DNA from: Methyloligella sp.
GTDB lineage: Bacteria > Pseudomonadota > Alphaproteobacteria > Rhizobiales > HXMU1428-3
Direction: 5' to 3'
Assembly: GCA_021604645.1 (NCBI GenBank)
Contig: BQJJ01000001.1
Coordinates: forward strand, 248,001-312,000
Length of the DNA: 64,000 nucleotides
The first letter of the stretch is position 1. The number at the start of each line of letters is the position of its first letter. Below are positions 1,947 to 47,670 of the stretch, in pieces. Under the pieces are notes generated by a model that ran no database searches, was not told the DNA's origin, and saw only the letters and a program-made list of their open reading frames with translations. Made by a program: the position numbers and the translations under genes.

Positions 1947-2360
1947 ATCTCACTCTCTTTCATTAATAAAGATAGCTTACGAAATGCGTGCTGCTATAAC
2001 TCTCACTTGTGCAAAAAACTCCTATATACAAGCTTAATCCCTGTTTCAAAATGAGGCTATGTGAAGCTAGCCTTATGGTTACTATACTAGAACTCCATTA
2101 ATGAATTATTGTTGAATGAAACATTCATTGGCCAATAAAAGTGGTTCATAAAAAAGTGAAGCAGTGTGATAGGAACAAGAAAATATCCTGATACGAAGAA
2201 GGAGTGACGCCCCTTCGGGGTAAGGACATGGCAGCACGAGCTGCCCGGCGCACAAGATCAGCCCGAGCGGAACTTTAGCGAGCACGGATTAGCTGATCGT
2301 AACAGAAGCGCCGCACCTCGTAGGCCTGCAGCTTTAGCTGCAGAGTAGCCGTGAGAGAAA
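1947..2360. other. Intergenic region holding a structured repeat
   Basis: The left part is the promoter region of the minus-strand patatin gene and shows nothing definite. The right part (2191-2358) is copy A of the multi-hairpin repeat family described separately. No small coding region was recognised. Confidence 0.6.
2191..2358 (+). repeat. Multi-hairpin repeat, copy A
   Basis: Starts with the linker GAAGAAGGAG (2195-2204) and ends with TAGCC-GTGAGAG (2346-2357), two bases from the stop of hisI. Stems along it: CCCC/GGGG (2210-2220), GGCAGC/GCTGCC (2230-2245), CGGCGC/GCGCCG (2246-2251 with 2308-2313) and TGCAGC/GCTGCA (2327-2342). The third stem carries an insert of about 55 nt that contains its own GATCAGC/GCTGATC hairpin, absent from copies B and C. 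Strand is given by the reading that starts with GAAGAAGGAG; the transcribed strand is unknown. Confidence 0.75.
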
Positions 2361-2810
2361 TTAAGATCCGTAAACGTCTTTTGGATTAAAGAGCGGTTTC
2401 ATATCGTTAAACGATAAAGAGATATCACTTCCCGAGGTAGACTGATCATGATTAAGTGACAATTTGCGATAATAGCAGCTCTGGCGTCCTGTATGGCATG
2501 CGGCCTTTACACCTTCCATCTCAACCATGAAACAGATCGAATCTTGGTCGCAATCAATAAGCACATCTTTGATGAGCAAGCGGTTGCCACTGGTTTCACC
2601 CTTTTGCCAATAAGCTTGTCGAGACCGAGACCAAAAATTAGCGTACCCAGTTTCTAATGTCGTCTTGAGTGCATCAATATTGACAAAGGCTTGCATCAAA
2701 AGTGTGCCAGATGAAGCCTCAATGACAATCGCCGGCATTAAACCATCACTGTCAAACTTAGGAGTGAAATCTAAAGTTTCATCAATCTTCTGGGCATCAT
2801 CACTTGCCAT
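2361..2810 (-). CDS. hisI: Phosphoribosyl-AMP cyclohydrolase
   Basis: 149-residue enzyme of histidine biosynthesis that opens the adenine ring of phosphoribosyl-AMP (third pathway step). The metal-binding block D-C-D-Q-D-S-I and the A-C-H-T-G-R-Q-S-C-Y zinc/active-site block are intact. As is usual in alphaproteobacteria it is separate from HisE. Its ATG (2808-2810) overlaps the end of folE by 11 nt, so the two are translationally coupled. Sharing an operon with folE makes sense because both enzymes open the purine imidazole ring. Downstream the gene runs directly into repeat copy A. Confidence 0.93.
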   Translation of the reverse strand: MASDDAQKIDETLDFTPKFDSDGLMPAIVIEASSGTLLMQAFVNIDALKTTLETGYANFWSRSRQAYWQKGETSGNRLLIKDVLIDCDQDSICFMVEMEGVKAACHTGRQSCYYRKLSLNHDQSTSGSDISLSFNDMKPLFNPKDVYGS

Positions 2811-3456
2811 TATTTACCATTCCCAAAAAGCGAGTTCTCAAATCTTTATCATCTTGGAATAAACCAGTAAAACGCGTTGTGATTGTTGCAACGTTCTGTT
2901 TGTTCACACCCCGCATAGACATGCACTGATGCTCAGCTTCAATCATTACGGCAGTTCCGCGTGTCCCAAGTCCTTTATCAATGGCTCGCGTGATCTGAGC
3001 CGTCATAGTTTCCTGGGTTTGTAATCTTTTGGAAAAGGTCTCAACAATGCGCGCCAATTTAGAAATTCCAACAACTTTTTTGGAAGGCATATAAGCGATA
3101 TGAACCTTGCCAACAAACGGAACCATATGGTGCTCACAGTGTGAGCTCATATCAATTCCGCGTAGCATCACCATATCATCATAACCAGCTACATCTTCAA
3201 AAGTGCGAGATAAAATCTCCATCGCATCTTCATCATAGCCCTTAAAGAATTCGCCATATGCTTTGGCAACTCGTTTCGGAGTATCAATTAATCCTTCACG
3301 CGCTGGGTCATCACCAGCCCAGGCAATTAATGTGCGAACAGCGTCCTCTGCCTCAGCTCGAGTTGGGCGAGAAGCAGAAGTTTGTTTTAAGCCAGTGGCG
3401 TTTTTCTTTAAACTTCCGTTGCTATTTTTGGGAGAGTTATCAGTAATGGTCGTCAT
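2800..3456 (-). CDS. folE: GTP cyclohydrolase I
   Basis: 218-residue GTP cyclohydrolase I (GTP to dihydroneopterin triphosphate, first step of folate/pterin synthesis). The zinc ligands are present as C107 and H110 in S-H-C-E-H-H and C178 in E-H-Q-C-M-S-M-R-G. Residues 1-30 are a low-complexity, polar extension beyond the conserved core, which begins about residue 33. It is the first gene of the folE-hisI pair and overlaps it by 11 nt. It is a type IA enzyme by sequence, with no sign of a type IB fold. Confidence 0.94.
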   Translation of the reverse strand: MTTITDNSPKNSNGSLKKNATGLKQTSASRPTRAEAEDAVRTLIAWAGDDPAREGLIDTPKRVAKAYGEFFKGYDEDAMEILSRTFEDVAGYDDMVMLRGIDMSSHCEHHMVPFVGKVHIAYMPSKKVVGISKLARIVETFSKRLQTQETMTAQITRAIDKGLGTRGTAVMIEAEHQCMSMRGVNKQNVATITTRFTGLFQDDKDLRTRFLGMVNNGK

Positions 3457-3982
3457 TCGTCACCTAATCTTTTAAGCTCTTCTCTGCGAATGAGTGATTT
3501 GCCGGACTTTGTTATTAAGTCGCAGAGGCGAATGTTATCAAGTCGCATAGGCATATCATTTTTCACAGTGTACTAATTTCTAAAATGTACTTAGAAATGT
3601 ACTTAAATTTTGAGCACTTAATCGTTTCTGTCAGAGAAAGCAAAGTTAATTAATTAAAAACTTTACATTCAGCTGTGCGAAAAGAGATAAGAGGTCATCT
3701 CTTGTTATTTAAGCATTCCATTCTTAAATTGTAATTCATCATTTAAAATGAAGAAAAAATAATGGTTAGCATAAAAAAACTGATAAGACCTTGGCCTAAT
3801 TCGCCCTTGAGCTTAAGTTTTTGCATATAGCATATTTGATTGTATGTTTGGAAAATAAAATTTCAGCGTCAAATATACGATCTAATATTGTTATATTGTA
3901 TCATATATAGTGGTGTGGGTCAGGTTTCAAGCATAAGCTTCAAATTTACTAAACTCATAGTGTTAAAGGATCATCTAAATTT
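3457..3982. other. AT-rich divergent intergenic region
   Basis: About 526 nt between the divergent folE and the scaffold gene, so it must hold both promoters. It contains an AAGAGAT/ATCTCTT hairpin near 3684-3705 and an imperfect direct repeat of AAGTCGCA (about 3517 and 3539). No convincing small gene was found. Confidence 0.4.
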
Positions 3983-4420
3983 ATGGACGCCCCTGAAGAT
4001 ATTTACAGCACCAAAATTTTAGAAGTGGTCGCTTCAATGCCTCAATCGGAGGCTTTTGAAGGGGCAGATGGGTCTGCGACCAAAAATTCAAAATTATGTG
4101 GTTCAAAAATTCACGTTGACTTAAATGTGTCAGGCGAAAAAATAACTAGATATGGACAAACCGTTGAAGCATGCCTGCTTGGTCAGGCCGCTGCCTCTGT
4201 CATGGCGCAAAATGCCGTTGGTCTAACCAAAAGTGATATTGAGGCCATCAGAGATGAAATGTTAGCGATGCTCAAAGAAGAGGGGCCAGCTCCCAAAGGT
4301 ATTTGGGCAGACCTCGAAGTGCTCTATCCGGTAAAAGATTACAAACCAAGACACACATCAATGATGCTTGTGTTCGAAGCAACACTGACCGCTATGGCAG
4401 AGGCGTTAAAGAATAAATAA
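3983..4420 (+). CDS. NifU/IscU-like Fe-S scaffold protein
   Basis: 145-residue protein of the NifU N-terminal/IscU fold, expected in Fe-S cluster assembly. Two of the three scaffold cysteines are visible: C39 in K-L-C-G-S and C64 in E-A-C-L-L-G-Q. The third canonical position, after the conserved histidine, is H124-T125 instead of His-Cys. So this is the divergent alphaproteobacterial subfamily, usually encoded next to yidD and folE as here. With one ligand missing, holding a cluster like IscU is uncertain; a carrier or partner role is possible. The start is the first in-frame ATG after the AT-rich leader. Confidence 0.8.
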   Translation: MDAPEDIYSTKILEVVASMPQSEAFEGADGSATKNSKLCGSKIHVDLNVSGEKITRYGQTVEACLLGQAAASVMAQNAVGLTKSDIEAIRDEMLAMLKEEGPAPKGIWADLEVLYPVKDYKPRHTSMMLVFEATLTAMAEALKNK

Positions 4421-4436
4421 AAATAAGCTGAACGAA

Positions 4437-4868
4437 TTATCGATCGTCGATTGATTTAAACTTGATATTGAAGTTTTCTAATATACCTCTTTGAACGCAC
4501 ATGTCTTGCATATAATAATCTTCATGCTCAGCATGACACTTTTTAGCTATATGCTTACATGCAGTATATACATAACCAATCTTAGCCCATTTACATCTTG
4601 TATCTTTAACACGTTGCGCTAATTGACTAGGCCAGTCTTTATCAAAATTATCATCCGGATTTGTGAGAGATGAATAGATTGAAGGAAATGTTTTAGTAAT
4701 TTTACTAGGTTTAATTGAAGGTAATAAAAACCGTGTCATTAATCGATTAAAATAGTTTGGATCATAATTGTTTTGATGTTCAGACAAATTTGGTGAATGA
4801 AAAAGAAAAAAACCACACAAGAAACCTAATATGGTTGTGAGTAATATTTGTAATTTTAAAGAAATCAT
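4437..4868 (-). CDS. Uncharacterised membrane-anchored or secreted protein
   Basis: 143 residues that I do not recognise. Residues 4-23 are hydrophobic with a C-G-F-F-L core, giving either a signal peptide or a single N-terminal anchor. The remainder is polar and carries seven cysteines after the hydrophobic segment region, several spaced C-x(3-8)-C near the C terminus (C-K-H-I-A-K-K-C), which suggests disulphides in the periplasm. Base composition is more AT-rich than the flanking genes, suggesting an orphan or acquired gene. It converges on the scaffold gene with only 16 nt between the stops. Confidence 0.5.
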   Translation of the reverse strand: MISLKLQILLTTILGFLCGFFLFHSPNLSEHQNNYDPNYFNRLMTRFLLPSIKPSKITKTFPSIYSSLTNPDDNFDKDWPSQLAQRVKDTRCKWAKIGYVYTACKHIAKKCHAEHEDYYMQDMCVQRGILENFNIKFKSIDDR

Positions 4869-5017
4869 GTGTGTTGACGCTTCTCTTTGTTTGATAGGGT
4901 AAGTTTTATACTTAGAAAGCTAGTCAGTAAAATCATATTATGAAATATGTTTGTGATGGTTACTTGTTAGTTAAGATGTAAAGTGTCCCATTAATATTTG
5001 AAATTATCGGTGCGTAA

Positions 5018-5362
5018 ATGATCAAAAAAATAACAACACTGTTGGATATATCTTCGCGCTGGGCACTAAAACTACCGATTTATGTCTATCGATATTCTCT
5101 GTCAGCAATCATGGGGCGGCAATGTCGTCATGAACCAAGCTGCTCATTATATGCAATCGACGCAATAAATCTAAATGGAGCATGGAAAGGGTTCTGGCTA
5201 ACATTGTCGCGTGTTTGGCGATGTGGGCCAGGAGGCAGTCATGGATTTGATCCCGCCCCGGATTTAACAGATGTTTCCTATCCGCTTTGGAAAGCTTGGT
5301 CTTATGGAGTTTGGAGAAAAAAGAGTTTGGGTCAAAAAGATGAAAAACAAAACAACAACTGA
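5018..5362 (+). CDS. yidD: Membrane protein insertion efficiency factor YidD
   Basis: 114-residue YidD homologue, a small inner-membrane-associated protein that helps YidC insert membrane proteins. The family core is plain: a short amphipathic N terminus, R-H-E-P-S-C-S-x-Y with its cysteine, G-x-W-K-G, and R-x-x-R-C-G-P-G-G-S-H-G-F-D-P. The C-terminal 25 residues form a lysine-rich tail. It stands between the scaffold gene and thrS, the usual rhizobial neighbourhood, but here the large patatin gene is inserted between yidD and thrS on the opposite strand, with a 10-nt gap between the yidD and patatin stops. Confidence 0.92.
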   Translation: MIKKITTLLDISSRWALKLPIYVYRYSLSAIMGRQCRHEPSCSLYAIDAINLNGAWKGFWLTLSRVWRCGPGGSHGFDPAPDLTDVSYPLWKAWSYGVWRKKSLGQKDEKQNNN

Positions 5363-5372
5363 GCTATGGTCA

Positions 5373-8300
5373 TTACTTCTGTTTTATTGAACCTGTGAAA
5401 GTACCATCCTCTTCAGAAGGACTTACCCGGTCTTCCCTATCAGATTTCCCCTCAGTTTGGCCGCGAGCAATAGCATTTTCCTCTTTCAGCTTTTGAGGCT
5501 TCACCCGATGTTTCCAATGGTTCAACTGTGCTTTTCTAAATTTTCGAATGGCACAAAAGGCCGGATTTAACTTTTGATTTAAGGTGAGGTTCTCGCTTTG
5601 TCTATCATCCCGTTTCCACTTCATTTGATTGTTCAAAGCGTTCTGAACAGATTTCGAAAGCCACCAACTCATTGAAAGTCGTTTGCTAGACCCAAGCTCA
5701 TCTTTAATTCCAGCCACTTGGAAATGAACAAATCTGTCTTGCCCATCAATGCCTGCAAGCGCGATCGCATGGCTCCCTCTTGCGACACGTGCATTTAATA
5801 ATGCGCTGGTAACCGAGGTGAGCTCAGGTAAAAATTGATGCTCTTCTGGCGGCGGGTTGTGATTAACAAAACTGTGCTCCGGGCAGCGAAATTTTTCTGT
5901 GCTTTGCAAATGTTCAGGGCTCTCTTTCAGAGTAACCGGATGATTGCTAATCTGAATGAGAATGGGCTTTAAGGCATTGTTTGAAAGAGTTTCAATTGCT
6001 TTGGCAAGTTCCAAAGTTGTTAGCATCCCTGAATTGTCAAAATATCCCCCATCAACAACCCGGTCGATAATCCGCCCCTGTATATTGCGTAAATTGCCGT
6101 GCGGTGAAATCAAAGGAAAACGAGCGGAAAGCGAAATAGCCTTGGAGATGGAAATATCAGGAATGGCCTCTTGAGATTGTTCACTATCCCAATTTTCAGC
6201 TGCTACTTGGCCATCGTCAATTTTATGCGCCAGAAGTTCATGGAGATCCAAACTGTCTGTGAAAATTGAAACAATCGGTGAGGCAGACGACTGGCTCTGA
6301 TCCGCACTTGCCAAATAAGGAGCAAATTGTATTTTATCTCTGATATTGTAACTAGGCTCTAAAGGCGTTGCGATCACTCTCTTGCCTGTCGAAACAGATG
6401 TGCCGTTTAATAATAAAAGTGGCAACCAGTGTTCTTCATTAGGGACATAAGAAAGAAGCGGCTCTACTAGGTGAGGGCGTTCTGTTAAATGTTGAAACCG
6501 TTTGTGCCAAGCCTGCTCGAGACTTTTTGCGCGGTCTGTTTTAGTCAGCAACCCAATAAGACTTGAAAGCGCAAGATTATCCCTGAAGGCAAAAGAGATC
6601 ATCGCTGGTGATAAAAAGTCACCAGCCGTAATCGCCTGCAAACAATTTTTCCAATTTGGCTGATAGTAAACTTTATCCTTCGAGGCCGTTGGCACAGAAA
6701 ACAATAATCCGTCTTGCCGCAAAGGCTGCCCCTTACAAGGATCTGTTCCATAAAGGCTGGTAGAGCTTGCCTTTAATGAGGCCGCATAGGTAGCACTTCC
6801 TAAAGACCCTCCTGAGACAGAAGAGATCGCGAAAATATGCTTTGCGACATCTTGAGCCGTTTTGGGGCGCTCAGAATTTGGCAATTGCTTGGGCCAGAAA
6901 AGAGAGGGGTTATCATGTAATTCCCCAAGAACAGTCGCTACAAAAAATGCAGAGCGAGAGGCTCCGCCACTTGCGGCAATGAGAATAGGTGGCGGGCAGG
7001 CCCGCGGCGTTTCCTTGCAGTTATGATGATCCATCCAAATTTCAAGCGCTTTTTTGAGTGCTAACTTTTGTGATCCCTGCACTGGAGAGCTAAGTTTATC
7101 AGAGATTTTCTGAGTGTCTTTTTTCTGTATGACAGCCGCCAGTTCAACATCATGATTGTCACCAAAGCCCCAACTTAGTGCAATACCACAAATGATAAAC
7201 ACAGTGAGAAAAGGAAACCGTAATTGGTTTGAAAGAAACGTGACAGTCGTTAGAAGCGGCACCCAAATTGAAAGTAAGACTGGCAATAGCAAAGCACGCC
7301 CAATTTCAAAAGGCGGTTGGTCAGGGCTATTTAGAGCAAATAATGCCCAAATAATCATAACTAACGTGAGAGCGAAAAGACCCAGCATCAACCCTCGTAC
7401 ATTTTCAGAAGGAGCTTCAAAACGAAAGAGCCCTAATTTGCGAAATGGGAAAAATTTAGGACTATTAGCTTTGAGTTGTTGAGTATGATTGGGGCGAACT
7501 TGAATGGGGAGATATTCGGAAAGTGCCCGTGTCTGGCGCAGCATAAATTGATGCGACGCAGGAAGCGCTCTAGATAAAAAGTAAAGCAGAGCCCGCCGCT
7601 TTGCAACAAAAGTGTAAAATACAACTCCCCACAAAATGGTCACCAAGGGGAGAGCCAGATTATGCAAAACCTGCATTCGGTAATGTTCAGCAAGGCGTGT
7701 TTTAAAATAAAGGTCACTTGCAGCAGCCAGCCAATAAAGAATAGCAATGCCAGAAAGGATAAAAGCCGAGCGCCCTAAACGCCGCGTAATGGTCTGAACT
7801 AGAATTAAACCGCCAAGCACAAAAATAAGAGGTAGAATATAGTGATTTTGCGCGCTGCTAATGAGAAATTGATCGTCAATTTGCAGGTTTCTTAGCGCAT
7901 TTACCTGGCCAATGAATATGGCAATGATACAAGTCCAGCCCAGATAACGAGGCACAGCTTCTATCCAATATGCGAAAGCCACCTCATCACCTCGAGACAA
8001 TGGCCAGCTTTCAAAAGATAGCACCGTCCGCGCGCAATAATGAACAATAAATGCCCAAAGAAAGCTCAATCCATAAAAGGTACACCAAAATTTGAATGTA
8101 TTAATATAATCAGCCGTTGTCGGGTTTTGATAATAAGTAAGCTCAGTATAGAGGTCTTGAACTTGTGGTAAAAAACTAAGAACTAACGCAAGTAATGCAC
8201 TTGCAGTACTAACACGGCAAAGCCAAAGGACAAGCAAGAGCCGGCGCACATCGCGCCAGACATCTGCTACAAAATCGACTATTGAGCGAGCCGTAAACAT
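5373..8300 (-). CDS. Large membrane-anchored patatin-like phospholipase
   Basis: 975-residue fusion. Roughly residues 10-390 hold about ten hydrophobic segments (an integral membrane domain). Residues about 430-860 are a patatin-like hydrolase with an S-G-G-A-S-R oxyanion loop near residue 443, nucleophile S496 in S-V-S-G-G-S, and catalytic D750 in V-D-G-G-Y-F. The final 110 residues are highly charged. Patatins are normally soluble, so anchoring the lipase to a polytopic domain suggests it acts on the lipids of the membrane it sits in. The gene is monocistronic and separates yidD from thrS. Substrate and regulation are unknown. Confidence 0.75.
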   Translation of the reverse strand: MFTARSIVDFVADVWRDVRRLLLVLWLCRVSTASALLALVLSFLPQVQDLYTELTYYQNPTTADYINTFKFWCTFYGLSFLWAFIVHYCARTVLSFESWPLSRGDEVAFAYWIEAVPRYLGWTCIIAIFIGQVNALRNLQIDDQFLISSAQNHYILPLIFVLGGLILVQTITRRLGRSAFILSGIAILYWLAAASDLYFKTRLAEHYRMQVLHNLALPLVTILWGVVFYTFVAKRRALLYFLSRALPASHQFMLRQTRALSEYLPIQVRPNHTQQLKANSPKFFPFRKLGLFRFEAPSENVRGLMLGLFALTLVMIIWALFALNSPDQPPFEIGRALLLPVLLSIWVPLLTTVTFLSNQLRFPFLTVFIICGIALSWGFGDNHDVELAAVIQKKDTQKISDKLSSPVQGSQKLALKKALEIWMDHHNCKETPRACPPPILIAASGGASRSAFFVATVLGELHDNPSLFWPKQLPNSERPKTAQDVAKHIFAISSVSGGSLGSATYAASLKASSTSLYGTDPCKGQPLRQDGLLFSVPTASKDKVYYQPNWKNCLQAITAGDFLSPAMISFAFRDNLALSSLIGLLTKTDRAKSLEQAWHKRFQHLTERPHLVEPLLSYVPNEEHWLPLLLLNGTSVSTGKRVIATPLEPSYNIRDKIQFAPYLASADQSQSSASPIVSIFTDSLDLHELLAHKIDDGQVAAENWDSEQSQEAIPDISISKAISLSARFPLISPHGNLRNIQGRIIDRVVDGGYFDNSGMLTTLELAKAIETLSNNALKPILIQISNHPVTLKESPEHLQSTEKFRCPEHSFVNHNPPPEEHQFLPELTSVTSALLNARVARGSHAIALAGIDGQDRFVHFQVAGIKDELGSSKRLSMSWWLSKSVQNALNNQMKWKRDDRQSENLTLNQKLNPAFCAIRKFRKAQLNHWKHRVKPQKLKEENAIARGQTEGKSDREDRVSPSEEDGTFTGSIKQK

Positions 8301-8747
8301 CTAAATGTCTATTCCCTTTTAGCCAAAGCTTAGTATTCAAGCTAAAGCAAAGTATCTGAAAGTGAAAAATCCAATCAGCACAAAAGACAAATAGATTGGT
8401 AATTAAGGAACTCAGTCTGAATGTTCTGATCAATTGTTCTTAAAGCTTGATAGCTGCCTACAGAGTTGAACAAAGAAAAAACGCGATTCAGTACCGTGAT
8501 TTTAACCGAATTGACCAGTGATGACGAGATGCCCAATGTCAGTTATACACATGACTTAATATGTTGATGGCCTAGTCAGAGAAGCTAAAAGCGATCAATG
8601 TTGCTAAATAAAATAGACCTTAGCTTCAAACACTGGACTTTCTACCCTAAAACGTGTAGATGCCCCTTATTCTAATTATTTAATAAAGTCTTAGACTTCA
8701 ATTTTCCACTTACCTGCACTGGTTTGCAGCGATTGAGAGGTTTCCAA
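8301..8747. other. Divergent intergenic region before thrS
   Basis: Contains the promoters of the large patatin gene (minus) and thrS (plus). I see no T-box-like leader, which is expected for this phylum. GAGAGG (8735-8740) is the ribosome binding site that selects the thrS ATG at 8748 over an upstream in-frame TTG at 8724. Confidence 0.45.
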
Positions 8748-10667: not shown

Positions 10668-10690
10668 CTTTAAAAAAATAAAACAGAAAA

Positions 10691-10725
10691 GCCCGCAAGA
10701 TTATATATAGTCTTGCGGGCTTTTT
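10691..10725 (+). terminator. Intrinsic terminator of thrS
   Basis: Perfect 10-bp stem GCCCGCAAGA / TCTTGCGGGC with a 10-nt AT loop, followed by five T residues. Confidence 0.93.
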
Positions 10726-10788: not shown

Positions 10789-10903
10789 GAAGAAGGAGCT
10801 CAGCCCTTTTCGGGCTGAGGGACATTACGCCATGGGCGTCCGGCGTTTAGCGCCGCCCCTCGGAGGCCCAAGCGCGTTAAGCGCTTGGAATAGCCGTGAG
10901 AGG
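10789..10903 (+). repeat. Multi-hairpin repeat, copy B
   Basis: Same linkers as copies A and C (GAAGAAGGAG at 10789-10798; CCTCGGAGGCC near 10858-10868; ATAGCC-GTGAGAG at 10890-10902), but the stems differ in sequence while still pairing. The first is CTCAGCCC/GGGCTGAG, the second ACGCC/GGCGT, the third CGGCG/CGCCG and the fourth CAAGCGC/GCGCTTG. It ends three bases from the stop of the minus-strand vWA gene. Confidence 0.8.
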
Positions 10904-10905
10904 TA

Positions 10906-12588
10906 TTACTGAACAATCACTTCTACTTGCTTTGTATCACCAGCTGTGACTGTGAAGTTCTGGCTATATTTTTGAGTGCCCCGTTCAGCAAGGATTGTAT
11001 AATCACCAGCGGCAAGGATGTGAGTTGGCAAAGCACCAGCACTTTTCTTGATTAAATCGCCCCGCGGAGAAAGCAGGCTCCATTTTGTATCTGCAAGAGC
11101 TTCCCCTCCCTTTTGATAAACCAATTTAAAAGTAACTTTAGCTGAGAGATGATTGATCGTCGCTTCAGTTAATTTACCAGCTACAAGCGAAATATCTGCC
11201 CTTGATTGCGCATTCGCGTCACCATAAGTGCTAATAACATGATAAATACCAGCATTGAGACGAACAACGACGCCAGGTCTGACTTTACCAATAACTTTGA
11301 GCCGTTTACCAAACTGATCACGTTCATCAGAGTAGATGTCAAAGGTGACTTTATTTTCAGAAATCGGCGTACCATTTGCAAGAACAGAACTGATGCGCAA
11401 GCCACCCGCATTAAGAATGAAATGCTCGGTTAAATTTTTCCCTGGCTCCACTTTAATTTTACGCGTTAAAAAAGAACGGCCATAGGCAGCATTAATAAGA
11501 TAAGTCCCCTTTGAAAGAGACATAACTGGCGCCGCAGTTCTGTGAGCACTAATAAGTTTGTGTTTGCCGGTTTTTTTGTCAGGCTTTTCATTATAAATCC
11601 GCCAAACCAGCCCTGTTTTTATCTCAGCACCGCCATCATTTAAATGAGCAACAAGAGCAAGACCGCCATGTGTTTTGTTGACCTTCAAGTTGTTCTGCTG
11701 AAACTTATCTTTAAGCTCTACCTGACCTTCATTTTCAACAGCACCAGTTATTGTTTTTTTGGTAGGGGCAACGATAATTTCAGTCGCACCAGCCCATGAA
11801 TTATCATTTTTTTCTTCTGGCTTGTTTTGAGCAATAAGAGCGGGTTTGACAAGTTTTGCTCGCTCAATACTGGCCCCAAGCGCGACGCTAATCTCTTTTG
11901 CATTTCTGGCATAAGTGAGTTTGCCATTTGAAGGAGTAATCACACAACTAAGTGGATTTATAGTGGGAGAGTTCGCGAAGCCAATGCCTATAACATCAAT
12001 GGTGATGTTAGGGTTTGCCCCATTTAAACTTAAAGCCGTTTCACACGGATCAAGAGGGCATTTGCCAAGCCCATCACTCAAAAGAATAATGCGCAAGGGT
12101 TTAGACTTATCTTTGACTAAACTGGCAGCGTCAAGCAATGATTGACCAATTGGGGCGGCGCCGCGCGGTCGTAACGGGTTAATAACAGGCACAAAGGTTG
12201 AGGCATTTAATTTTTGCAAGGGCTTGATAACTTGAACAGAATTACAACCACGACTAGCTATATGCCCATAGGCCAGTAATCCAGCATTGATTTTTTTATC
12301 ATAAGTTTTTAATGCGCTGGAAAGAGCTTGCTGAGTAATGGTGACTTTGATCTCATTATCCAGCTTCGCCCACATGCTTTTTGATAAACCATATATAAAT
12401 ACAACAGAAGGGTTAGTATCTGATTGGGCAACAGCTTTATGGGAAACAATAGGCAACAGTAATAAACTACAAAAAATACAGATTGTCAGTCTATTCAGAG
12501 ACCTGTCCCTATAAGAGCTAAAGCGACAAGTTAGTGCGTTTAAAGCTCGTTTGATTAAGTCCGAAGGTTTTATTTTGTCTAGAGACAT
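10906..12588 (-). CDS. Secreted vWA-like protein with degenerate MIDAS
   Basis: 560 residues: cytoplasmic N terminus, a hydrophobic export segment (about residues 34-54, ending A-V-A-Q), a von Willebrand A-type domain (about 60-230), then C-terminal beta-rich repeats resembling carboxypeptidase-regulatory/PEGA modules. The metal site D-x-S-x-S reads G67-L-S-K-S, so the metal-binding aspartate is lost, unlike the paralogue upstream on the same strand (12722-14758), where it is intact. The two are probably co-transcribed, 133 nt apart. Function is unknown; a periplasmic or surface scaffold is plausible. Confidence 0.7.
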   Translation of the reverse strand: MSLDKIKPSDLIKRALNALTCRFSSYRDRSLNRLTICIFCSLLLLPIVSHKAVAQSDTNPSVVFIYGLSKSMWAKLDNEIKVTITQQALSSALKTYDKKINAGLLAYGHIASRGCNSVQVIKPLQKLNASTFVPVINPLRPRGAAPIGQSLLDAASLVKDKSKPLRIILLSDGLGKCPLDPCETALSLNGANPNITIDVIGIGFANSPTINPLSCVITPSNGKLTYARNAKEISVALGASIERAKLVKPALIAQNKPEEKNDNSWAGATEIIVAPTKKTITGAVENEGQVELKDKFQQNNLKVNKTHGGLALVAHLNDGGAEIKTGLVWRIYNEKPDKKTGKHKLISAHRTAAPVMSLSKGTYLINAAYGRSFLTRKIKVEPGKNLTEHFILNAGGLRISSVLANGTPISENKVTFDIYSDERDQFGKRLKVIGKVRPGVVVRLNAGIYHVISTYGDANAQSRADISLVAGKLTEATINHLSAKVTFKLVYQKGGEALADTKWSLLSPRGDLIKKSAGALPTHILAAGDYTILAERGTQKYSQNFTVTAGDTKQVEVIVQ

Positions 12589-30106: not shown

Positions 30107-30184
30107 TGCGGATGCGTAGTAGGCATCAGAAGCACATCAAAAAATGCGGTTGCTGCGACGGTTGCTAGTGGGCAACCTAAAGCA
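30107..30184 (+). repeat. GTGGGCA-loop hairpin repeats (copies 3 and 4)
   Basis: Copy 3 (30107-30134) is TGCGGATGC, GTAGTAGGCATC, AGAAGCA. Copy 4 (30145-30184) keeps the TAGTGGGCA loop but its stem is GGTTGC/GCAACC instead of GATGC/GCATC, so pairing is kept by compensating changes; it also has a small internal duplication of CGGTTGC. Copy 4 ends 17 nt before the small ORF's ATG. Confidence 0.8.
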
Positions 30185-31200: not shown

Positions 31201-31205
31201 ATTGA

Positions 31206-40911: not shown

Positions 40912-40938
40912 ACGGCTTAAAGTCCAGAAAACAAAAAT

Positions 40939-40968
40939 GAGGGAGGCGCAGATGACCTCCCTCACATT
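40939..40968 (-). terminator. Terminator of the MBL gene
   Basis: GAGGGAGG (40939-40946) pairs with CCTCCCTC (40956-40963). On the minus strand the stem is followed by ATTTTTGTTTTC (complement of 40927-40938), so it fits the MBL transcript. Confidence 0.78.
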
Positions 40969-41000
40969 GCTTTGAGCTAGTTAAATCGAGTAAAAATGCC

Positions 41001-41966: not shown

Positions 41967-42534
41967 AATTACTAGTCCTTAAAATATTAAAAAATGCGAG
42001 ATGAACATCTCTTCTTCACCACTAAATATAAATGAAAATTAAGACATTTGTTGCAGTCCTTGTTCAAAGTTTTGTGAGTGTTGATAGGAGAAGAGTTTGT
42101 GGACTTAATTTGAGATAAATTTATCGAAACGGAAAACCCATAAACTAAAGTAGAAAGCCGCTTTGCAGCATATTTGTGCACAGATAAAAAAGAATCATGT
42201 CATGCCATTACCAATTGGATTTCAGGCAAGCCGTTATCTGTAAATTTATGTTGCAATTACAGAACTAGGCCTCATTAGACGCGGTAACTAGCAGCTAAAA
42301 TTTTATGCGCCTGCATAAGAAAAAAGCAATCCAATTCTTTAGTAGAAAATTTTGAAACGTATTTTGAACAAAGAATGGGCAATAAGCTGCCTACTTTGTA
42401 AGCATTTGAAAAACAACAAGATTTTTGAATAAAAAACACGGATTCAATTTGCATCTTTATTTTTTTGTCACTATCGTGATGAGCAATATTGGAGACAATT
42501 ATTAATTTTGTTTTTCTACCGGGGGTAACCGAAA
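41967..42534. other. Divergent AT-rich region before the porin gene
   Basis: About 568 nt holding the promoters of the MBL gene (minus) and the porin (plus). The porin's SD is GGGGG (42522-42526). An open frame on the minus strand at 42275-42556 overlaps the porin start and is not credible. A short dyad TCAC-TATC-GTGA lies at about 42469-42480. Confidence 0.35.
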
Positions 42535-43782
42535 ATGAAAATGAATAGTCATTCACTAGGCAAATTAGCGTTTATATCTGCGCTGTTCGCAGCGCCTTTA
42601 AGCGCACACGCTGGTGAAGCTCTCTTCGATGCAATTAAAGCAGGTAAGCTTTCAATCGATGAGAGATATAGATATGAATATGTAGACCAGGATGGCATTG
42701 CAGAAGAAGCAAATGCATCAACATTAAGAAGCCGGGTTGGATGGAAATCTGGTAGCTTTTATGGCTTAACTCTTGGTGTTGAATTTGAAGCTGTAACAAA
42801 CGTCTTTGGTGATGAATTTAACAACACTATCAACGGCAAAACTCAATTTCCAGTTGTTGCAGATGTTAAATCTCACGAACTAAACCAACTTTATATGCAA
42901 TATTCCGGTCTACCTGGAACAGTTGCAAAAATTGGCCGCCAAGTGATCACTGTTGATAATCATCGTTTTGTTGGACACGTTGGATGGCGCCAAAACAATC
43001 AAACATTTGACGCAGGCATGGTGAAAAACACATCAATTCCTGGTCTCACACTTACCTATGGTTACATTGATAAAGTGAACCGTATTTTTGGTAATGATTC
43101 ACCTAATGGTGATTGGGATAGTGAAAGCCATATTCTACATGCTGGTTATAAAATCCACGGCGTTGGTGTTGTAAAGGGTTATGGATTTTTACTCGACTTT
43201 GATGAGGATAGCCCCGCAAATTCAAACGCGTCTTACGGTATCTCTCTTAAAGGTAAAAGAGAATATGCCGGTTACGGTTTGCATTACTATGCAGAATACG
43301 CTCACCAGGAAGATTACGGTAGCAACACACTAGAGTATGATGCTGACTATTATCATCTAGCTCTTGGTGTTTCTAAATCAGGGCTAAAAACAACCGTTGG
43401 TTATGAAGTTCTTGGCGCTGACGATGATTCAACAGGACGCTTTAGAACACCTCTAGCTACCTTACATAAATTCAATGGCTTTGCTGATAAGTTCTTAGTA
43501 ACACCAGAAAACGGCTTGGAAGATTTTTATGTAGACGTGACATACAAAGTCAAAAACGCACCTGGTCAATTATCAATCTTCAACGGGCTACTTCTTAAAG
43601 CTCAATATCATGACTTCAAGTCTGAAGAAGGATCAATTGATTATGGCACAGAATTTGATTTCTACGCAAAGATGCCTTTAAGAAGAGGTGTATATGTAGA
43701 GGCCAAATACGCAAATTATAATGCAGATCAATTTGCGACAGACACTGAGAAATTTATCATGGGTGTCGGTTGGAAATATTAA
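42535..43782 (+). CDS. Outer-membrane porin, alginate-export-like
   Basis: 415 residues: signal peptide (about 1-27, ending A-H-A), then repeated short amphipathic strands with alternating aromatic and polar residues and a terminal aromatic (W-K-Y), as for beta-barrel porins of the alginate-export (AlgE-like) superfamily. The solute cannot be told. It uses a G-rich SD like the TorF porins. Two hairpin terminators follow. Confidence 0.75.
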   Translation: MKMNSHSLGKLAFISALFAAPLSAHAGEALFDAIKAGKLSIDERYRYEYVDQDGIAEEANASTLRSRVGWKSGSFYGLTLGVEFEAVTNVFGDEFNNTINGKTQFPVVADVKSHELNQLYMQYSGLPGTVAKIGRQVITVDNHRFVGHVGWRQNNQTFDAGMVKNTSIPGLTLTYGYIDKVNRIFGNDSPNGDWDSESHILHAGYKIHGVGVVKGYGFLLDFDEDSPANSNASYGISLKGKREYAGYGLHYYAEYAHQEDYGSNTLEYDADYYHLALGVSKSGLKTTVGYEVLGADDDSTGRFRTPLATLHKFNGFADKFLVTPENGLEDFYVDVTYKVKNAPGQLSIFNGLLLKAQYHDFKSEEGSIDYGTEFDFYAKMPLRRGVYVEAKYANYNADQFATDTEKFIMGVGWKY

Positions 43783-43802
43783 TTTCCAAAATACGAAAAC
43801 AA

Positions 43803-43903
43803 AAGAAGTCATAAGACTTTAATGGCTTCTTTTACTTGATCATTAAACTCTCCTATTTAGACTGCACCTGCTGGGGTTCCCATACCAGTAGGTGCTTTTT
43901 TAT
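43803..43903 (+). terminator. Double terminator of the porin
   Basis: First hairpin AGAAGTCAT/ATGGCTTCT (43804-43830, one G-U) with a short T run. Second, stronger: GCACCTGCTGG / CCAGTAGGTGC (43864-43895, one G-U) followed by TTTTTT. Confidence 0.86.
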
Positions 43904-43960
43904 AACATTGTCATGGTAGTTAGATAGTTTTGAGGGGGGGCAGGTTCTAAACCTGTGAGC

Positions 43961-46126
43961 CTAAGCGCTAAGAGCTTTTTCCGCGAGAACACATTTTAAA
44001 ATCCCATAGCTATAACGCCCTTCAAGCGCCTCATAGCTTGGCTTCAATTGGCCGGTTTGAAATATGTTCTGTTCTTCAAAAGCCTGACCAATTTCAGCAA
44101 TGGCCACCTCATCAATTTCTTGCAAATCTTTGATTTCAAGAACACCGCCTTCAATGGCATCTGCAAAATGATCATAAATGGTCGAAATACCAATGCTGCG
44201 CTTTTCAGAAATAACGTCAGGTTTATGCCCTTGTAGGTGCAAAAGCAAGGTCTGATTAACTGTGTCAGAGAGTTTGTTATTAAGTTCAGCTAGCGGTGGG
44301 TGAGCTTTGATGACCTTTAAAAAATCATCTCCATAGCGGTTGATCTTACTCTCTCCAAGACCTGTTATATTATAAAGCCCTGTTTTTGTTTTCGGCCTCA
44401 CAGTGACTAGTTCCTCAAAAGTGCGGTTATGACAAATCACATAAGGAGCAACCTTTTGAGTGGCTGCTAATTCAGTGCGAAGCGCAATCAAAGCATCCCA
44501 TAAAGGCTTATCAGCAGCTGGCACTTTCGTATCTTTGCTGCGACTTGCCCTTTTGGTTTTAGCCGTCATACGCAAACGCCGTAGTTGAAACATTCCCTCG
44601 CCCTTCAAGAGGGGGCGGCATGTTTCGCTTAAATGAAGGCCTCCATATTTGTCATGATCAGATAGTAAAAACCCGCGCGCAATAAGCTGCCTGAAAATAC
44701 TCCGCCATTCTTTATCACTAATATCACTGCCAATACCAAACGTAGAGACCTGATCATGATTATTCTGAATGATGCGCTCATCCGCATTACCAAGTAAAAC
44801 TTTGATGAGATATGAAACCCCAAATCGTTGTCCAGTCCTATAAACGGTAGAGAGAGCTTTCTGTGCGAGTTGAAGCCCATCAAATGTCTCCGGCGGAGAA
44901 ATGCAATTATCACAATTGCCACAATTACCAGATGTTCCCGAGGTTTTGTCTCCCTCTTGCTCACTATCTGGTTCTTGACCAAAATAAGTGAGTAAATGCT
45001 CACGCCGGCACGTTGTGGTCTCACATAAGCCAAGCAGCGCATCTAATTTTTGGCGCTCAACTTGCTTTTGAGTATCTCCTGCGTCAGAATTCTCAATCCA
45101 TTGTTGGTAGGTGATGACATCATTAAGGCCATAAGCCATCCAGCTATTGGCTGGTTCGCCATCGCGCCCGGCACGTCCTGTTTCTTGATAATAAGATTCA
45201 ATCGATTTTGGCAAATTTAGATGAGCAACAAAACGAACATCCGGCTTATCAATTCCCATACCAAAAGCAACGGTTGCAACCATCACTATGCCGTCTTCTC
45301 TCAAAAAACGTGTTTGTGCATCTCGTCGGATAGATGCATCCATCCCCGCATGATAGGGCAGGGCTGTTCGCCCTTTCTTTGAAAGCCACTCAGCTGTCTC
45401 TTCCACCTTTTTGCGAGATAAACAATAAATGATACCCGCATCATTACTATGTTCTGCTTCTAAAAACCGCCAGAGCTGTTCCCTGTTGCTACCACCCTCA
45501 GCAATCGTATAGCGAATGTTGGGTCGATCAAAGCTGGCAATAAATTGAGCTGCCCCAGTTAAGCGTAATTGCTCTACAATCTCGGCTTTTGTTCTCTGAT
45601 CAGCTGTTGCTGTCAAGGCAATGCGTGGCACATGAGGAAAGAGATCAGCCAAAGCTGAAAGCTGCCTGTACTCAGGCCTAAAATCATGCCCCCACTGGGA
45701 AACACAATGAGCTTCATCAATGGCAAATAGTGAGAGGTCAGCGCTTGCTAATAGCTCGAGCATTCTATTTGAAAGTAAGCGCTCTGGCGCAACATAAAGA
45801 AGGTCCAATGAGCCATTGAGCAATTGATCCTGAACATCACGTTGCTCTGCTTGTGTCTGTGTTGAGTTGAGAAAAGCGGCTTTTACGCCGAGTTGAATGA
45901 GAGCATCAACCTGATCTTGCATAAGAGCGATGAGCGGAGAGACAATGATGCCAGTTCCAGGTCGCACAAGGGCAGGGATCTGATAACAAAGAGATTTCCC
46001 CCCACCAGTCGGCATAAGGGTCAGACAATCGCCGCCGCCAATCAAAGTTTCGATTACTGAAGCTTGATGGCTGCGAAAATCGTCATAACCAAATGTTTTT
46101 TTTAGAATTTCCCGCGCTCTTAACAT
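43961..46126 (-). CDS. recQ: ATP-dependent DNA helicase RecQ
   Basis: 721-residue superfamily 2 helicase: Walker A T-G-G-G-K-S (40-45), D-E-A-H box (137-140), and motifs S-R-K-K and [13 protein letters not shown] in helicase domain 2. The zinc cysteines sit in C-R-R-E-H and C-G-N-C-D-N-C, then RQC and C-terminal HRDC domains. Unwinds recombination and fork intermediates. Length and domain order are standard. Upstream lies the NsrR-like gene on the same strand, 114 nt away. Confidence 0.95.
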
Positions 46127-46240
46127 TGAAAATAAATATCATAAACAGGAATTTTATGCGATATGCCAGTGGACCTTGCTCACAGAAGATATGTTACAAA
46201 TGAGATGAAAAGCGTAAAAATGAAAAGAAGTGAAAATGCT

Positions 46241-46693
46241 CTATGTTTCACTAACCTCAAGTTCCGTGAGGAACATTTTTTTGAGGTTTTTCTCATTAAT
46301 CACAGCATCTTCAAGAGTATATTGCCGAAAGACCTCAATAAAAGCTGTAATGGCTTCATGCATAATTGTTTGAGCGCCACAATTACCTGCAATTTTACAG
46401 TTGTTTTTCTCTGGATCTAAACAGGAGACAAGATAAAAGTCAGCTTCCATTTTTTGAATGACGTCGCCTAAGTTAATCTCAGAAGCTGCGCGTGCCAAAC
46501 GAAGACCACCATTTCGCCCGCGTTCACTAATAACAAACTTATGATGAACAAGCTCTTGAGCAACTTTCATCATATGGTTTTTAGAAATCTGATATTGTTC
46601 AGAAATATCACTGATAGTAGCCAATTTTTCATCCCTGATGGCAAGAAAAATAAGAGTTCTAATGGCATAGTCTGTGTGAACTGTTAAGCGCAT
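46241..46693 (-). CDS. nsrR: NsrR-like Rrf2-family regulator
   Basis: 150-residue Rrf2 protein. Winged helix (about 1-80) with the recognition N-H-M-M-K-V-A and G-R-N-G-G-L-R-L wing. Three cysteines in S-C-L-D-P-E-K-N-N-C-K-I-A-G-N-C near residues 92-107 are the Fe-S ligands that in NsrR sense nitric oxide. The H-M-M-K motif favours NsrR over IscR or RirA, though this needs phylogeny. A dyad before its ATG may be its operator. Confidence 0.84.
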   Translation of the reverse strand: MRLTVHTDYAIRTLIFLAIRDEKLATISDISEQYQISKNHMMKVAQELVHHKFVISERGRNGGLRLARAASEINLGDVIQKMEADFYLVSCLDPEKNNCKIAGNCGAQTIMHEAITAFIEVFRQYTLEDAVINEKNLKKMFLTELEVSET

Positions 46694-46717
46694 GTAAGAT
46701 CCTGATCAATTTAGCTC

Positions 46718-46750
46718 TTTAAAACATACTTTAATAGAGAATGTTTTAAA
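46718..46750. promoter_or_regulatory. Dyad upstream of the NsrR-like gene
   Basis: TTTAAAACAT (46718-46727) and ATGTTTTAAA (46741-46750) are a perfect 10-bp inverted repeat with a 13-nt spacer, 25 nt before the NsrR-like ATG. The position suits autoregulation, but the spacing differs from the classic NsrR 11-1-11 site, so the match to NsrR is not shown. Confidence 0.5.
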
Positions 46751-46854
46751 AGAAACATATTTTTTCTCCTTCAAAGCCCCTTATTTATACTAGGAAGCAA
46801 TATGTCAGTCTTTAATCTAAATTAAAGAGCATAATAAAGTTGGATAATATACTA

Positions 46855-46946
46855 GACAGGGCTCAGACCCCAGTTGACAATTTTAGAGGTCTATGTCATT
46901 AAACCCCTAGAAAAGGCCAGTTTTTTTAGCTGGCCTCTGTTTTTTG
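46855..46946 (+). ncRNA. Candidate small RNA with terminator
   Basis: AGACC/GGTCT hairpin (46865-46892) followed by AGGCCAG (46914-46920) pairing with CTGGCCT (46930-46936) and a run of six T. A terminator has no upstream plus-strand gene, since NsrR is on the minus strand, so a short untranslated RNA is likely. A TATACT box at 46848 is the only promoter hint and its -35 is poor; TTGACA at 46874 is an alternative. Confidence 0.35.
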
Positions 46947-47199
46947 TGCGATTGCTCGTTTTATGACGCTTAATCGTTAATAACACAGATATTAGACCTA
47001 ACTACGGTTGTTTATTTTCTACTCTAAACGAGTTTGCCTTGATCTTATAAGTCATTCTAACATAAAACACTGAATTTATTAGTTTTTTTGCATGAATGGT
47101 TTGAGGTTATATTGAAATTGAGGCGCTGGCACTTGTAGCAAAGAAACGCAGTAAACGTAATTAGAGCCATATTTAACTTACGATATCGGATTTAAAACA

Positions 47200-47325
47200 A
47201 TGAAGATCAGAAATTCACTTAAGTCGCTAGCAAAGCGCCATCGGGATAACCGCGTAGTACGTCGTCGTGGCCGTCTTTATGTAATTAACAAAACAAACCC
47301 AAGATTTAAAGCGCGCCAAGGTTAA
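47200..47325 (+). CDS. rpmJ: 50S ribosomal protein L36
   Basis: 41 residues starting [10 protein letters not shown] and ending K-A-R-Q-G, matching the alphaproteobacterial L36 form with R-x-R-V-V-R-R-R-G-R and no zinc cysteines. It is a separate gene rather than part of a ribosomal operon, as is common for this L36 type. A strong terminator follows. Confidence 0.93.
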
Positions 47326-47391
47326 TCAAAGAAGGTTAATCTGAGAAGGTTATTTGTAGCGCATTAGCTTAGATCTAATGGACTAAGAATC

Positions 47392-47436
47392 AAAAGCCGT
47401 TTTGCATTTACTTGCAAAGCGGCTTTTCGTTTTTTC
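47392..47436 (+). terminator. Terminator of rpmJ
   Basis: AAAAGCCGTTTTGCA (47392-47406) pairs with TGCAAAGCGGCTTTT (47413-47427) over 15 bp with one G-U, followed by a run of T. Confidence 0.92.
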
Positions 47437-47478
47437 CAAAAACATACTCCCCCTAGGAGGCTGTCTGCGATGCCTATG

Positions 47479-47504
47479 CGAATTGCTTTGTTAGCATCTG
47501 AAGC
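47479..47504 (+). repeat. Weak GTGGGCA-type hairpin repeat
   Basis: GC GAATTGCTTTG, then TTAGCATCTG and AAGC. It shares TGC-TTTG, GCATCTGAAGC with copies 1, 2 and 5, but the GTGG loop reads GTTA, so it is a degenerate member. Confidence 0.45.
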
Positions 47505-47551
47505 ACTTCTAAGAAGTGAAAACTTGATAAGTAAAGCAACCAAACCTCACC

Positions 47552-47670
47552 ATACGAAGAAGGAGTGACGCCTTTTCGGTGCCATGACATGGCGAATCGT
47601 CAGTGTAGCCCGGCGCAAGCGCCGTCCCTCGGAGGCCTGCAGCTTTAGCTGCAGAATAGCCGTGAGAGAG
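47552..47670 (+). repeat. Multi-hairpin repeat, copy C
   Basis: Opens with ATACGAAGAAGGAGTGACG (identical to copy A for 19 bases) and ends GAATAGCC-GTGAGAG at 47654-47668, 25 bases from the mrpG stop. Stems CGGCG/CGCCG and TGCAGC/GCTGCA are intact; the second stem is weak, unlike copies A and B. Confidence 0.8.

What the first reader, a model, noticed from the sequence alone, without database searches (positions are those of the whole stretch)
2191..47670. Three copies of a structured repeat with conserved linkers and compensating stems
Copies at 2191-2358, 10789-10903 and 47552-47670 share GAAGAAGGAG, GACAT, CCTCG(G/T)AGGCC and TAGCC-GTGAGAG, while stems 1, 2 and 4 differ in sequence but still pair (for example TGCAGC/GCTGCA against CAAGCGC/GCGCTTG). 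Fixed linkers with covarying stems is what RNA selection leaves. All three are in the same orientation and abut the 3' end of a minus-strand operon (2, 3 and 25 nt from the stops), so they sit in 3' UTRs, antisense to the GAAGAAGGAG reading. Copy A carries a 55-nt hairpin insert. Neither a REP-type palindrome nor a mobile element explains the constant linkers well.
Basis: partly seen in the sequence, partly recalled or inferred. Interest (0 to 1): 0.78.

Follow-up and report, generated by a model that had tools for sequence, protein, structure and literature searches.

The report
Strand-locked family of hairpin DNA repeats
The three copies belong to a family of about 115-base, four-hairpin DNA repeats scattered at least 150 times through this bacterium, nearly all pointing the same way relative to DNA replication, which suggests a small mobile element that moves at the replication fork rather than a messenger-RNA signal.

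Summary
Four hairpins are joined by fixed linkers. A fifth helix around hairpin 4, found here, also covaries (CTC/GAG, CGC/GCG; rarer GTC/GAC, AAC/GTT, ATC/GAT).

The RNA 3'-UTR reading is not supported as the main explanation. Orientation follows replication: 145 of 150 copies share their contig's majority, and polarity matches third-codon GC skew in 17 of 18 regions by strict pattern (1 tie). Between co-directional genes orientation is even (31:29). One copy lies between hisF and hisE. G-T pairs are rare and, across genera, no commoner than A-C (26 v 30).

Sister genomes share most sites, often with exchanged stems or tandem copies; some sites are empty. Y1 transposase was not found in 10 of 12 other carriers (the own genome has two such genes, away from copies), nor reverse transcriptase in 8 of 11.

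Best reading: a non-autonomous hairpin element oriented by lagging-strand DNA, mover unknown. Rfam, plasmids, phages and limited open-access searches gave no convincing match.

The parts
2195..2359 (+). Copy A of the element (GAAGAAGGAG ... TAGCCGTGAGAG): lead 2195-2204, hp1 2205-2223 (degraded), GACAT 2225-2229, hp2 2230-2245, hp3 arms 2246-2251 / 2308-2313, P5/P4b 5' arm 2317-2325, hp4 2326-2343, 3' arm and tail 2346-2357
   Evidence: R1 match 86.3 bits; coordinates
2252..2307 (+). 56-nt insert in the hp3 loop of copy A: like the AAGATCAGC...GCTGATC hairpin inserts found in hp3 loops of other copies
10789..10904 (+). Copy B, without insert: lead 10789-10798, hp1 10799-10819, GACAT 10821-10825, hp2 10827-10839, hp3 10841-10855, P5/P4b 5' arm 10859-10867, hp4 10868-10888, tail 10891-10902
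   Evidence: R1 match 129.5 bits; folds as drawn with DNA and RNA parameters, z -5.3 and -3.5
47556..47670 (+). Copy C: lead 47556-47565, hp1 47566-47584, GACAT 47586-47590, hp2 (long form) 47591-47610, hp3 47611-47624, P5/P4b 5' arm 47628-47636, hp4 47637-47654, tail 47657-47668
   Evidence: R1 match 92.7 bits; fold z -2.8 (DNA) and -1.3 (RNA), hp1/hp2 not in the minimum-energy fold
30160..30176 (+). Core hairpin of another dispersed family (GGTTGCNNGTGGGCAAC), same polarity; elsewhere nested in the loops of the large element
2361..2810 (-). ORF (149 aa) whose stop lies 3 nt from copy A
10906..12588 (-). ORF (560 aa) whose stop lies 3 nt from copy B
47694..48053 (-). ORF (119 aa) whose stop lies 25 nt from copy C

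Best explanation
The copies are a non-autonomous, hairpin-built interspersed DNA element (REP/MITE-like in kind) that spreads as, or into, single-stranded DNA at the replication fork. Shown: a folded unit of four hairpins plus a fifth helix around hairpin 4, with the internal loop GNA/GTGA; at least 150 copies in this genome; polarity locked to the direction of replication as judged by GC skew; sites that are filled in one sister species and empty in the other, tandemly multiplied, or carry exchanged stems. Inferred: polarity is set at insertion, because the element (or its target) is used as single strand on the lagging-strand template, here the strand that reads CTCTCACGGCTATT...CTCCTTCTTC; the stems are kept because the enzyme or fork process that moves it reads the ssDNA fold and the fixed linkers, not the stem letters; recombination between copies and tandem duplication reshuffle stem modules afterwards; closeness to stop codons reflects tolerance and the target, not a function. 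The mover is unknown; the two obvious ones, Y1 (IS200/RAYT) transposases and reverse transcriptases, were not found in most carriers searched.
For: Copies: 119 forward and 44 reverse sites of TAGCCGTGAGAG with up to 1 mismatch, against 2 and 7 for the reversed pattern; 150 R1 matches, the cap. Polarity in the own genome: 5 of 150 copies point against the majority of their contig (my count). Third-codon GC skew in 22 regions: of the 18 with copies by strict pattern, 17 agree in sign, 1 is a tie, 0 disagree, while genes there run both ways; counting R1 matches instead, 20 of 21 regions agree and 1 disagrees (L070, a single wrong-polarity copy). Sister species G007: 2 of the 140 rows listed are exceptions. 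G002 (37 matches, 10 listed): 7 of 7 '-' on contig C2 (skew positive in 6 of 6 samples), 1 of 1 '+' on C1 (skew negative in 14 of 14); one search lists three more '-' and one '+' on C2 and one more '+' on C1. G032, another family: 30 of 30 copies on contigs with two or more copies agree within their contig, and the skew sign agrees on 9 of 9 contigs sampled, two of them near zero. A second hairpin family has the same polarity: 96 of the 100 rows listed of 242 sites. Gene orientation does not set it: L-R- 31 v L+R+ 29. DNA-like pairing: 91.7% Watson-Crick, GT 26, AC 30 of 1558. Turnover: 19 of 23 G000 hits in a 320-kb stretch have a G007 hit in the matching gap and 4 do not; the reverse is 22 and 4 of 26 with flanks. 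Of 21 copy pairs aligned (several combinations at tandem sites), 5 are at least 94% alike; the other 16 (73-89%) include wholly exchanged stems. IS200/IS605 and Tn7 orientation tracks replication (PMC5371812, passages seen).
Against: No mover was found. PF01797 gave no match in 10 of 12 carriers searched, including G007 with 150 matches. The two Y1 genes of G000 lie in a 20-kb stretch without copies. Only two clean empty sites were seen; one shows a 15-nt imperfect flanking repeat around 52 nt plus the element, so the insertion ends are not defined. In G018, 24 of 52 copies form 12 inverted pairs and polarity is not visible, so the lock is not a property of the whole family. Wrong-polarity copies are intact, most of them in 5'-5' inverted pairs, which the model does not predict. 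In the own-genome set G-T exceeds A-C, 108 v 77.
Confidence: 0.55

Rival explanations
1. Structured RNA in 3' UTRs: the minus-strand transcript of the upstream gene folds into the element and is stabilised, processed or terminated there.
For: Strong covariation. The 3' end of the element lies close to the stop of a facing gene (median 23 nt, n=71). G-T exceeds A-C in the own-genome set, 108 v 77. 5 of 6 wrong-polarity copies lie 10-39 nt from a facing stop.
Against: 38 of the 109 copies with a right-hand gene have it pointing away, 29 of them in sense with both neighbours. One copy lies between hisF and hisE. Polarity follows replication in two families. GT 26 v AC 30 across genera. No Rfam family.
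Confidence: 0.12
2. A polarity signal with a job at the fork or in segregation (like KOPS or a single-strand initiation site): copies are kept in one direction by selection.
For: 145 of 150 in G000, 138 of 140 listed in G007, 30 of 30 in G032. Most sites are shared by sister species.
Against: Match counts swing from 9 to 150 (the cap) within one genus. 218 of 249 genomes of the order gave no match under strict filters. Pairs without visible polarity in G018. Two unrelated hairpin families share the polarity, which suits a common mechanism of insertion better.
Confidence: 0.13
3. Passive hairpin repeats made and corrected by replication itself: template switching at quasi-palindromes keeps stems perfect, slippage multiplies copies, no dedicated enzyme.
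For: Double changes far outnumber one-sided ones (46 v 5 cells). Tandem gain or loss, and exchange of halves or stems at fixed sites. Inverted 5'-5' pairs.
Against: Does not explain constant unpaired linkers across genera, the covarying interrupted helix P5, or well over a hundred dispersed sites with the same ends.
Confidence: 0.15
4. A REP/BIME element mobilised by a Y1 (RAYT or IS200-like) transposase that has been lost from most genomes or escaped the search.
For: Hairpins with a G(T/G)AG tag before the hp4 arm in many copies. Mostly between genes, few between divergent genes. G000 has two Y1 genes, and G033 and G018 one each. IS200-type polarity.
Against: No Y1 match in any of the 7 congeners or in G032, G065, G154. 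The Y1 genes of G000 are flanked by another repeat (my reading). Tag letter 2 is G, T, C or A.
Confidence: 0.05

Closest known systems
REP / BIME / REPIN elements with RAYT (TnpA-REP)
   Same: Hairpin repeats, mostly between genes, over 100 copies per genome, in singles, tandems and (in G018) inverted pairs.
   Different: About 115 nt with four hairpins and a fifth helix; constant linkers; polarity locked to replication in f1 and f26; no Y1 match in 10 of 12 carriers searched.
IS200/IS605 elements and their non-autonomous relatives (PATEs, recalled)
   Same: Orientation follows replication (PMC5371812, passages); subterminal hairpins read as ssDNA (PMC6006769, passages).
   Different: No Y1 match in most carriers searched; no coding part; no defined target tetranucleotide found.
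Rhizobial RIME, Sm-repeats and AB, C palindromes (named in PMC2573895, passages); Brucella Bru-RS (103-105 or 118 bp, table in PMC2267715, passages)
   Same: Repeats between genes in the same bacterial order; Bru-RS is of similar length.
   Different: Model R2 finds nothing significant in 300 kb of S. meliloti pSymB (best E 0.95). DNA searches of plasmids, pSymB among them, gave no match to three of four queries and one weak Pseudoroseomonas match (E 7e-3, half the query) to the fourth. Bru-RS sequence was not compared.
Integron attC sites (recalled)
   Same: Structure rather than sequence of one folded DNA strand is recognised, so stems vary and pairing stays.
   Different: Cassette arrays and core sites were not looked for.

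Membership tests
REP/BIME with RAYT | Y1 transposase gene in the genome, flanked by the repeats | tested here: not met
   PF01797 found in 2 of 12 carriers searched, in none of 7 congeners; G000 has two such genes with no copy in their 20-kb stretch
REP/BIME with RAYT | Short (20-40 bp) palindrome tagged with GTAG or CGTC (title and start of abstract seen, passages, PMC3733652) | tested here: not met
   Unit of about 115 nt with several hairpins; the tag-like GNAG before the hp4 arm has N = G, T, C or A
REP/BIME with RAYT | Many copies between genes | tested here: met
   150 matches, the cap; contexts. 15 of 111 copies overlap an ORF by more than half, mostly short ORFs
IS200/IS605-type non-autonomous element | Orientation follows replication | tested here: met
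   not visible in G018
IS200/IS605-type non-autonomous element | Y1 transposase to act in trans | tested here: not met
   No match in 10 of 12 carriers; the own genome has two
IS200/IS605-type non-autonomous element | Fixed cleavage/target sequence, no target duplication (recalled) | tested here: inconclusive
   Two clean empty sites only; one has a 15-nt imperfect flanking repeat
Structured RNA family (Rfam) | Match to a curated model | tested here: not met
   None at gathering score in the window; in 14 loci with distant copies one ffh match outside the copies
Structured RNA family (Rfam) | G-U pairs favoured over A-C on the transcribed strand | tested here: inconclusive
   26 v 30 across genera; 108 v 77 in the own genome; no tRNA yardstick computed
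RNA-copied (group II-like or retron-like) element | Reverse transcriptase in carriers | tested here: not met
   PF00078 gave no match in 8 of 11 carriers, G000, G007 and G032 among the 8
RIME (rhizobial) | Sequence and structure similarity | tested here: inconclusive
   R2 best E 0.95 in 300 kb of pSymB, but that RIMEs lie in those stretches was not verified
Bru-RS (Brucella) | Sequence similarity | not tested
   No Brucella sequence was fetched
Integron attC | R and L core sites, cassette array, integrase | not tested
   Recalled likeness only

The most novel reading that the evidence does not exclude
An alphaproteobacterial class of hairpin elements that transposes as folded single-stranded DNA at the replication fork by an enzyme other than any known HUH (Y1) transposase or reverse transcriptase, or by the replisome itself, with a multi-helix ssDNA fold (including the GNA/GTGA internal loop) as the recognised object.
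Probability: 0.25. Interest if true: 0.82.

Novelty: new variant of a known kind. Interest (0 to 1): 0.6.

Why it matters
Covarying stems are usually taken as a mark of selection for RNA. Here is a large family with very strong covariation where polarity, gene context and (across genera) pairing types point to single-stranded DNA and replication instead, a caution for RNA discovery by covariation. If the polarity is set at insertion, these repeats record fork direction copy by copy, and they should be moved by an ssDNA-acting factor that is not a known Y1 transposase. That factor can be sought by comparing carriers with non-carriers in the order.

Tried and rejected
Rejected or led nowhere:
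- RAYT flanked by the element: the Y1 genes of G000 have another flanking repeat, with no copies nearby. Reverse transcriptase as mover: no match in 8 of 11 carriers.
- A recurrent gene between neighbouring copies (cargo or mover): by reading ORF starts I saw only ordinary-looking chromosomal genes; family searches were run on four of these ORFs only, which are HisH, HisA, HisF and HisE.
- Shared left flanks as part of the unit: those I looked at are tandem neighbours, and there is a weak CTAaCTATAC consensus. The palindrome TTTATGAATTCATAAA (up to one mismatch) occurs only twice in 717 kb.
- KOPS-like octamer (recalled motif) as replichore marker: too few sites; third-codon GC skew used instead.
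- tRNA yardstick for G-U use: too few tRNAs in the loci (6 listed), not computed.
- Model R2 over the class gave few matches under the strict filters (9 of 385, own genome included), so prevalence is a lower bound.
- Plasmids and phages: no match for window copy B in plasmids and chance-level matches in phages (one phage, two records, E 0.09); one weak plasmid match for L216, none for L211 and L222.
- Literature: seven searches of an open-access library. No listing pointed to this element, and the sequence search returned five unrelated papers. This does not cover subscription journals. No paper was read whole: passages of five, listings for the rest.


Full report
WHAT IS THERE. They match a covariance model R1, built from 11 insert-free copies of the same genome, at 86.3, 129.5 and 92.7 bits. 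In the whole genome (G000, 3.57 Mb, 27 contigs) the tail TAGCCGTGAGAG with up to one mismatch occurs 163 times, against 9 for the reversed pattern. R1 finds 150 copies, which is the number the search scores at most. So this is a large interspersed family.

STRUCTURE. On the strand that starts GAAGAAGGAG the order is: lead, hairpin 1, (G)GACAT, hairpin 2, hairpin 3, a block CnCGNAGGC, hairpin 4, AATAGCCGTGAGAG. In 11 copies, 91.2% of cells of the four hairpins pair and 46 cells change on both sides, with 5 on one side. Copies from other genera reveal a fifth, interrupted helix around hairpin 4: [XXX]-GNA-[GGC]-hp4-AATA-[GCC]-GTGA-[X'X'X']. XXX and X'X'X' are CTC/GAG or CGC/GCG in most copies and GTC/GAC, GCC/GGC, AAC/GTT or ATC/GAT in one or two copies each. 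One search counts the first two as 26 and 15 among the matching rows of A4; the rarer ones are among the rows that it printed as unmatched (13 of A4, 29 of A3), not all of which pair. Over 55 distinct rows of A4 and 33 pairs, 93.4% of cells pair, 439 change on both sides (shuffled mean 117.5, none of 500 as high), and structures slid by 1-3 columns fall to 28-46% paired. A4 was fitted to R1, so this leans towards hairpins 1-4, not towards the fifth helix. Folding with DNA or RNA parameters gives these helices for copy B on both strands; for copy C it keeps hp4 with the inner part of the helix around it (and hp3 except on the minus strand with RNA parameters) and rearranges hp1 and hp2.

DNA OR RNA. 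A covarying helix need not mean RNA. In A4 the pair types are 91.7% Watson-Crick, 26 G-T and 30 A-C of 1558 cells. RNA selection on either strand should favour the wobble of that strand. In the own-genome set the counts are 108 G-T and 77 A-C of 2786, a mild lean to RNA of the GAAGAAGGAG strand; one model pair that is probably loop supplies 22 of the A-C (and 5 of the G-T), so leaving it out makes the lean stronger, 103 to 55. No tRNA yardstick was computed because the loci held only 6 tRNAs. I read the two sets together as favouring a DNA-level fold, not as proof.

POLARITY. The striking new fact is direction. Of the 150 copies in G000, 145 agree with the majority of their contig and 5 do not (my count). 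Contigs differ in sign. Third-codon GC skew, computed in 22 regions of about 18-64 kb, has the predicted sign in 17 of the 18 regions that hold copies by strict pattern, with one tie. Counted by R1 matches it is 20 of 21; the one that disagrees, L070, holds a single wrong-polarity copy that the strict pattern misses. The GAAGAAGGAG strand is the G-poor one. By the usual rule that the leading strand is G-rich, its complement is the lagging-strand template. The same holds in G007 (138 of the 140 rows listed agree with their contig; skew positive in all 16 stretches of C3, where the listed copies are '-'). It holds in G002, of whose 37 matches 10 are listed and 5 others: C1 skew is negative in 14 of 14 samples with 2 of 2 copies '+', C2 positive in 6 of 6 with 10 of 11 copies '-'. 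It also holds in G032 of another family (30 of 30 copies on contigs with several copies; skew sign agrees on 9 of 9 contigs sampled, 0.012 and 0.037 at the lowest). A second, unrelated hairpin family (GGTTGCNNGTGGGCAAC, 242 sites) follows the same polarity in 96 of the 100 rows listed.

GENES DO NOT SET IT. Among 111 distinct copies of G000 the neighbours are convergent 38, both leftward 31, both rightward 29, divergent 7, incomplete 6 (simple ORF calling). If transcription set the direction, 31 v 29 would be lopsided. One copy (L079 8113-8232) lies between hisF and hisE, in sense with both, and others lie nearby around hisH and hisA. One regularity remains: when the right-hand gene faces the element, the element's 3' end is close to its stop (median 23 nt, n=71), while the left gene's stop is further off (median 123 nt, n=69).

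TURNOVER. In a 320-kb stretch of G000 and its counterpart in G007, a profile search finds 23 and 28 hits, all on one strand. 19 of the 23 G000 hits have a G007 hit in the matching gap between aligned blocks. Of 26 G007 hits with flanks, 22 have one in G000. I aligned 21 copy pairs, several combinations at tandem sites included. Five are at least 94% alike; the other 16 are 73-89% alike (gaps left out), although in 20 of the 21 pairs at least one 300-nt flank is 85% alike or more. Several have whole stems or halves exchanged. The window's own sites show the same: sites A and B hold copies in G007, G003 and G001 and none in G004, G005 and G002; G006, seen for the right flank of site B only, shows none; site C was seen only in G007, which has two copies. 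Tandem gain or loss is clear at one site. Two empty sites are clean enough to read. At one, 52 nt plus the element lie between imperfect 15-nt repeats, at the other the ends are diverged. The insertion mechanism is therefore not defined.

EXCEPTIONS. Four of the five wrong-polarity copies of G000, both of G007 and two in G004 lie in 5'-5' inverted pairs with spacers of about 47-180 nt (one search shows five of these pairs). The fifth of G000 (C3:43158), a sixth weaker one (L073 11355), and single '+' copies in G004 (L210 7682) and G002 (L207 15237) do not. In G018 (another family) 24 of 52 copies form 12 such inverted pairs, 11 of them 18-27 nt apart, and polarity is not visible. This resembles REPIN doublets and is unexplained.

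DISTRIBUTION. All 8 genomes of the family (one genus) have matches, 9 to 150 each with 150 candidates scored per genome. In the order, 31 of 249 genomes and 13 of 111 genera match R1, own genus included. In the class, 9 of 385 match R2, the own genome included. Its records are mostly Hyphomicrobiales MAGs and Rhodomicrobium sp. DHS20C08, whose contig lengths equal those of G002. Single hits lie in MAGs labelled Rhizobiaceae, Cohaesibacter, Altererythrobacter and Pseudomonadales; R1 confirms the first three, not the last. Binning errors are possible for single hits.

WHAT MOVES IT. PF01797 (Y1 transposase of IS200/IS605 and RAYT) gave no match in 10 of 12 carriers searched, including G007. The two in G000 lie in a stretch without copies and are flanked by another repeat. 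PF00078 (reverse transcriptase) gave no match in 8 of 11. Passages of PMC5371812 and PMC6006769 state that IS200/IS605 elements insert into the lagging-strand template, and the former that their orientation, like that of Tn7 by the TnsE route, follows replication. So the element works like such elements, but the tested membership features that concern the transposase and the REP tag and size fail.

VERDICT. A new family of compound hairpin repeats, a new variant of a known kind (REP/MITE-like), with polarity locked to replication and no known mover.

Noticed in passing
G000, whole genome; window 30160-30176: A second dispersed hairpin family, GGTTGCNNGTGGGCAAC with variable outer stems (170 forward, 72 reverse sites), same polarity per contig in 96 of 100 rows listed, often nested in hp1, hp3 or hp4 loops of the large element or just after its 3' end. 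A GGATGC/GGCATC variant looks like a compensated stem of the same family.
   Followed up: partly
window 2252-2307; L212 2880-3017: Another hairpin repeat, AAGATCAGC...GCTGATC, inserted in the hp3 loop of the large element in more than one genus.
   Followed up: partly
G000:C4:167644-167998, C5:223742-224135, C14:45225-45499; L209 9506-9868 and 12584-12997: Inverted 5'-5' pairs of the element; such pairs hold 4 of the 5 wrong-polarity copies of G000 and both of G007; one has TTTATGAATTCATAAA in the spacer.
   Followed up: partly
G018:C59:7030-7252 and 11 similar places: In this genome 24 of 52 copies form inverted pairs, 11 of the 12 pairs 18-27 nt apart, and polarity is not visible.
   Followed up: partly
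L222 1310-1874: Tandem array of six short copies with a period of about 94 nt in G065.
   Followed up: no
L033 2368-15676: Two Y1 transposase ORFs beside a 2410-aa haemagglutinin-like ORF (my reading of its sequence), set among repeats of AATTACGGTGACAG.
   Followed up: no
G000 contigs C6, C14, C15, C19 against C2, C3: Copies are denser on some contigs with weak GC skew; whether these lie near the terminus was not determined.
   Followed up: no
L222 2052-2104: Match to the Rfam ffh sRNA family (38.2 bits), outside the element copies.
   Followed up: no
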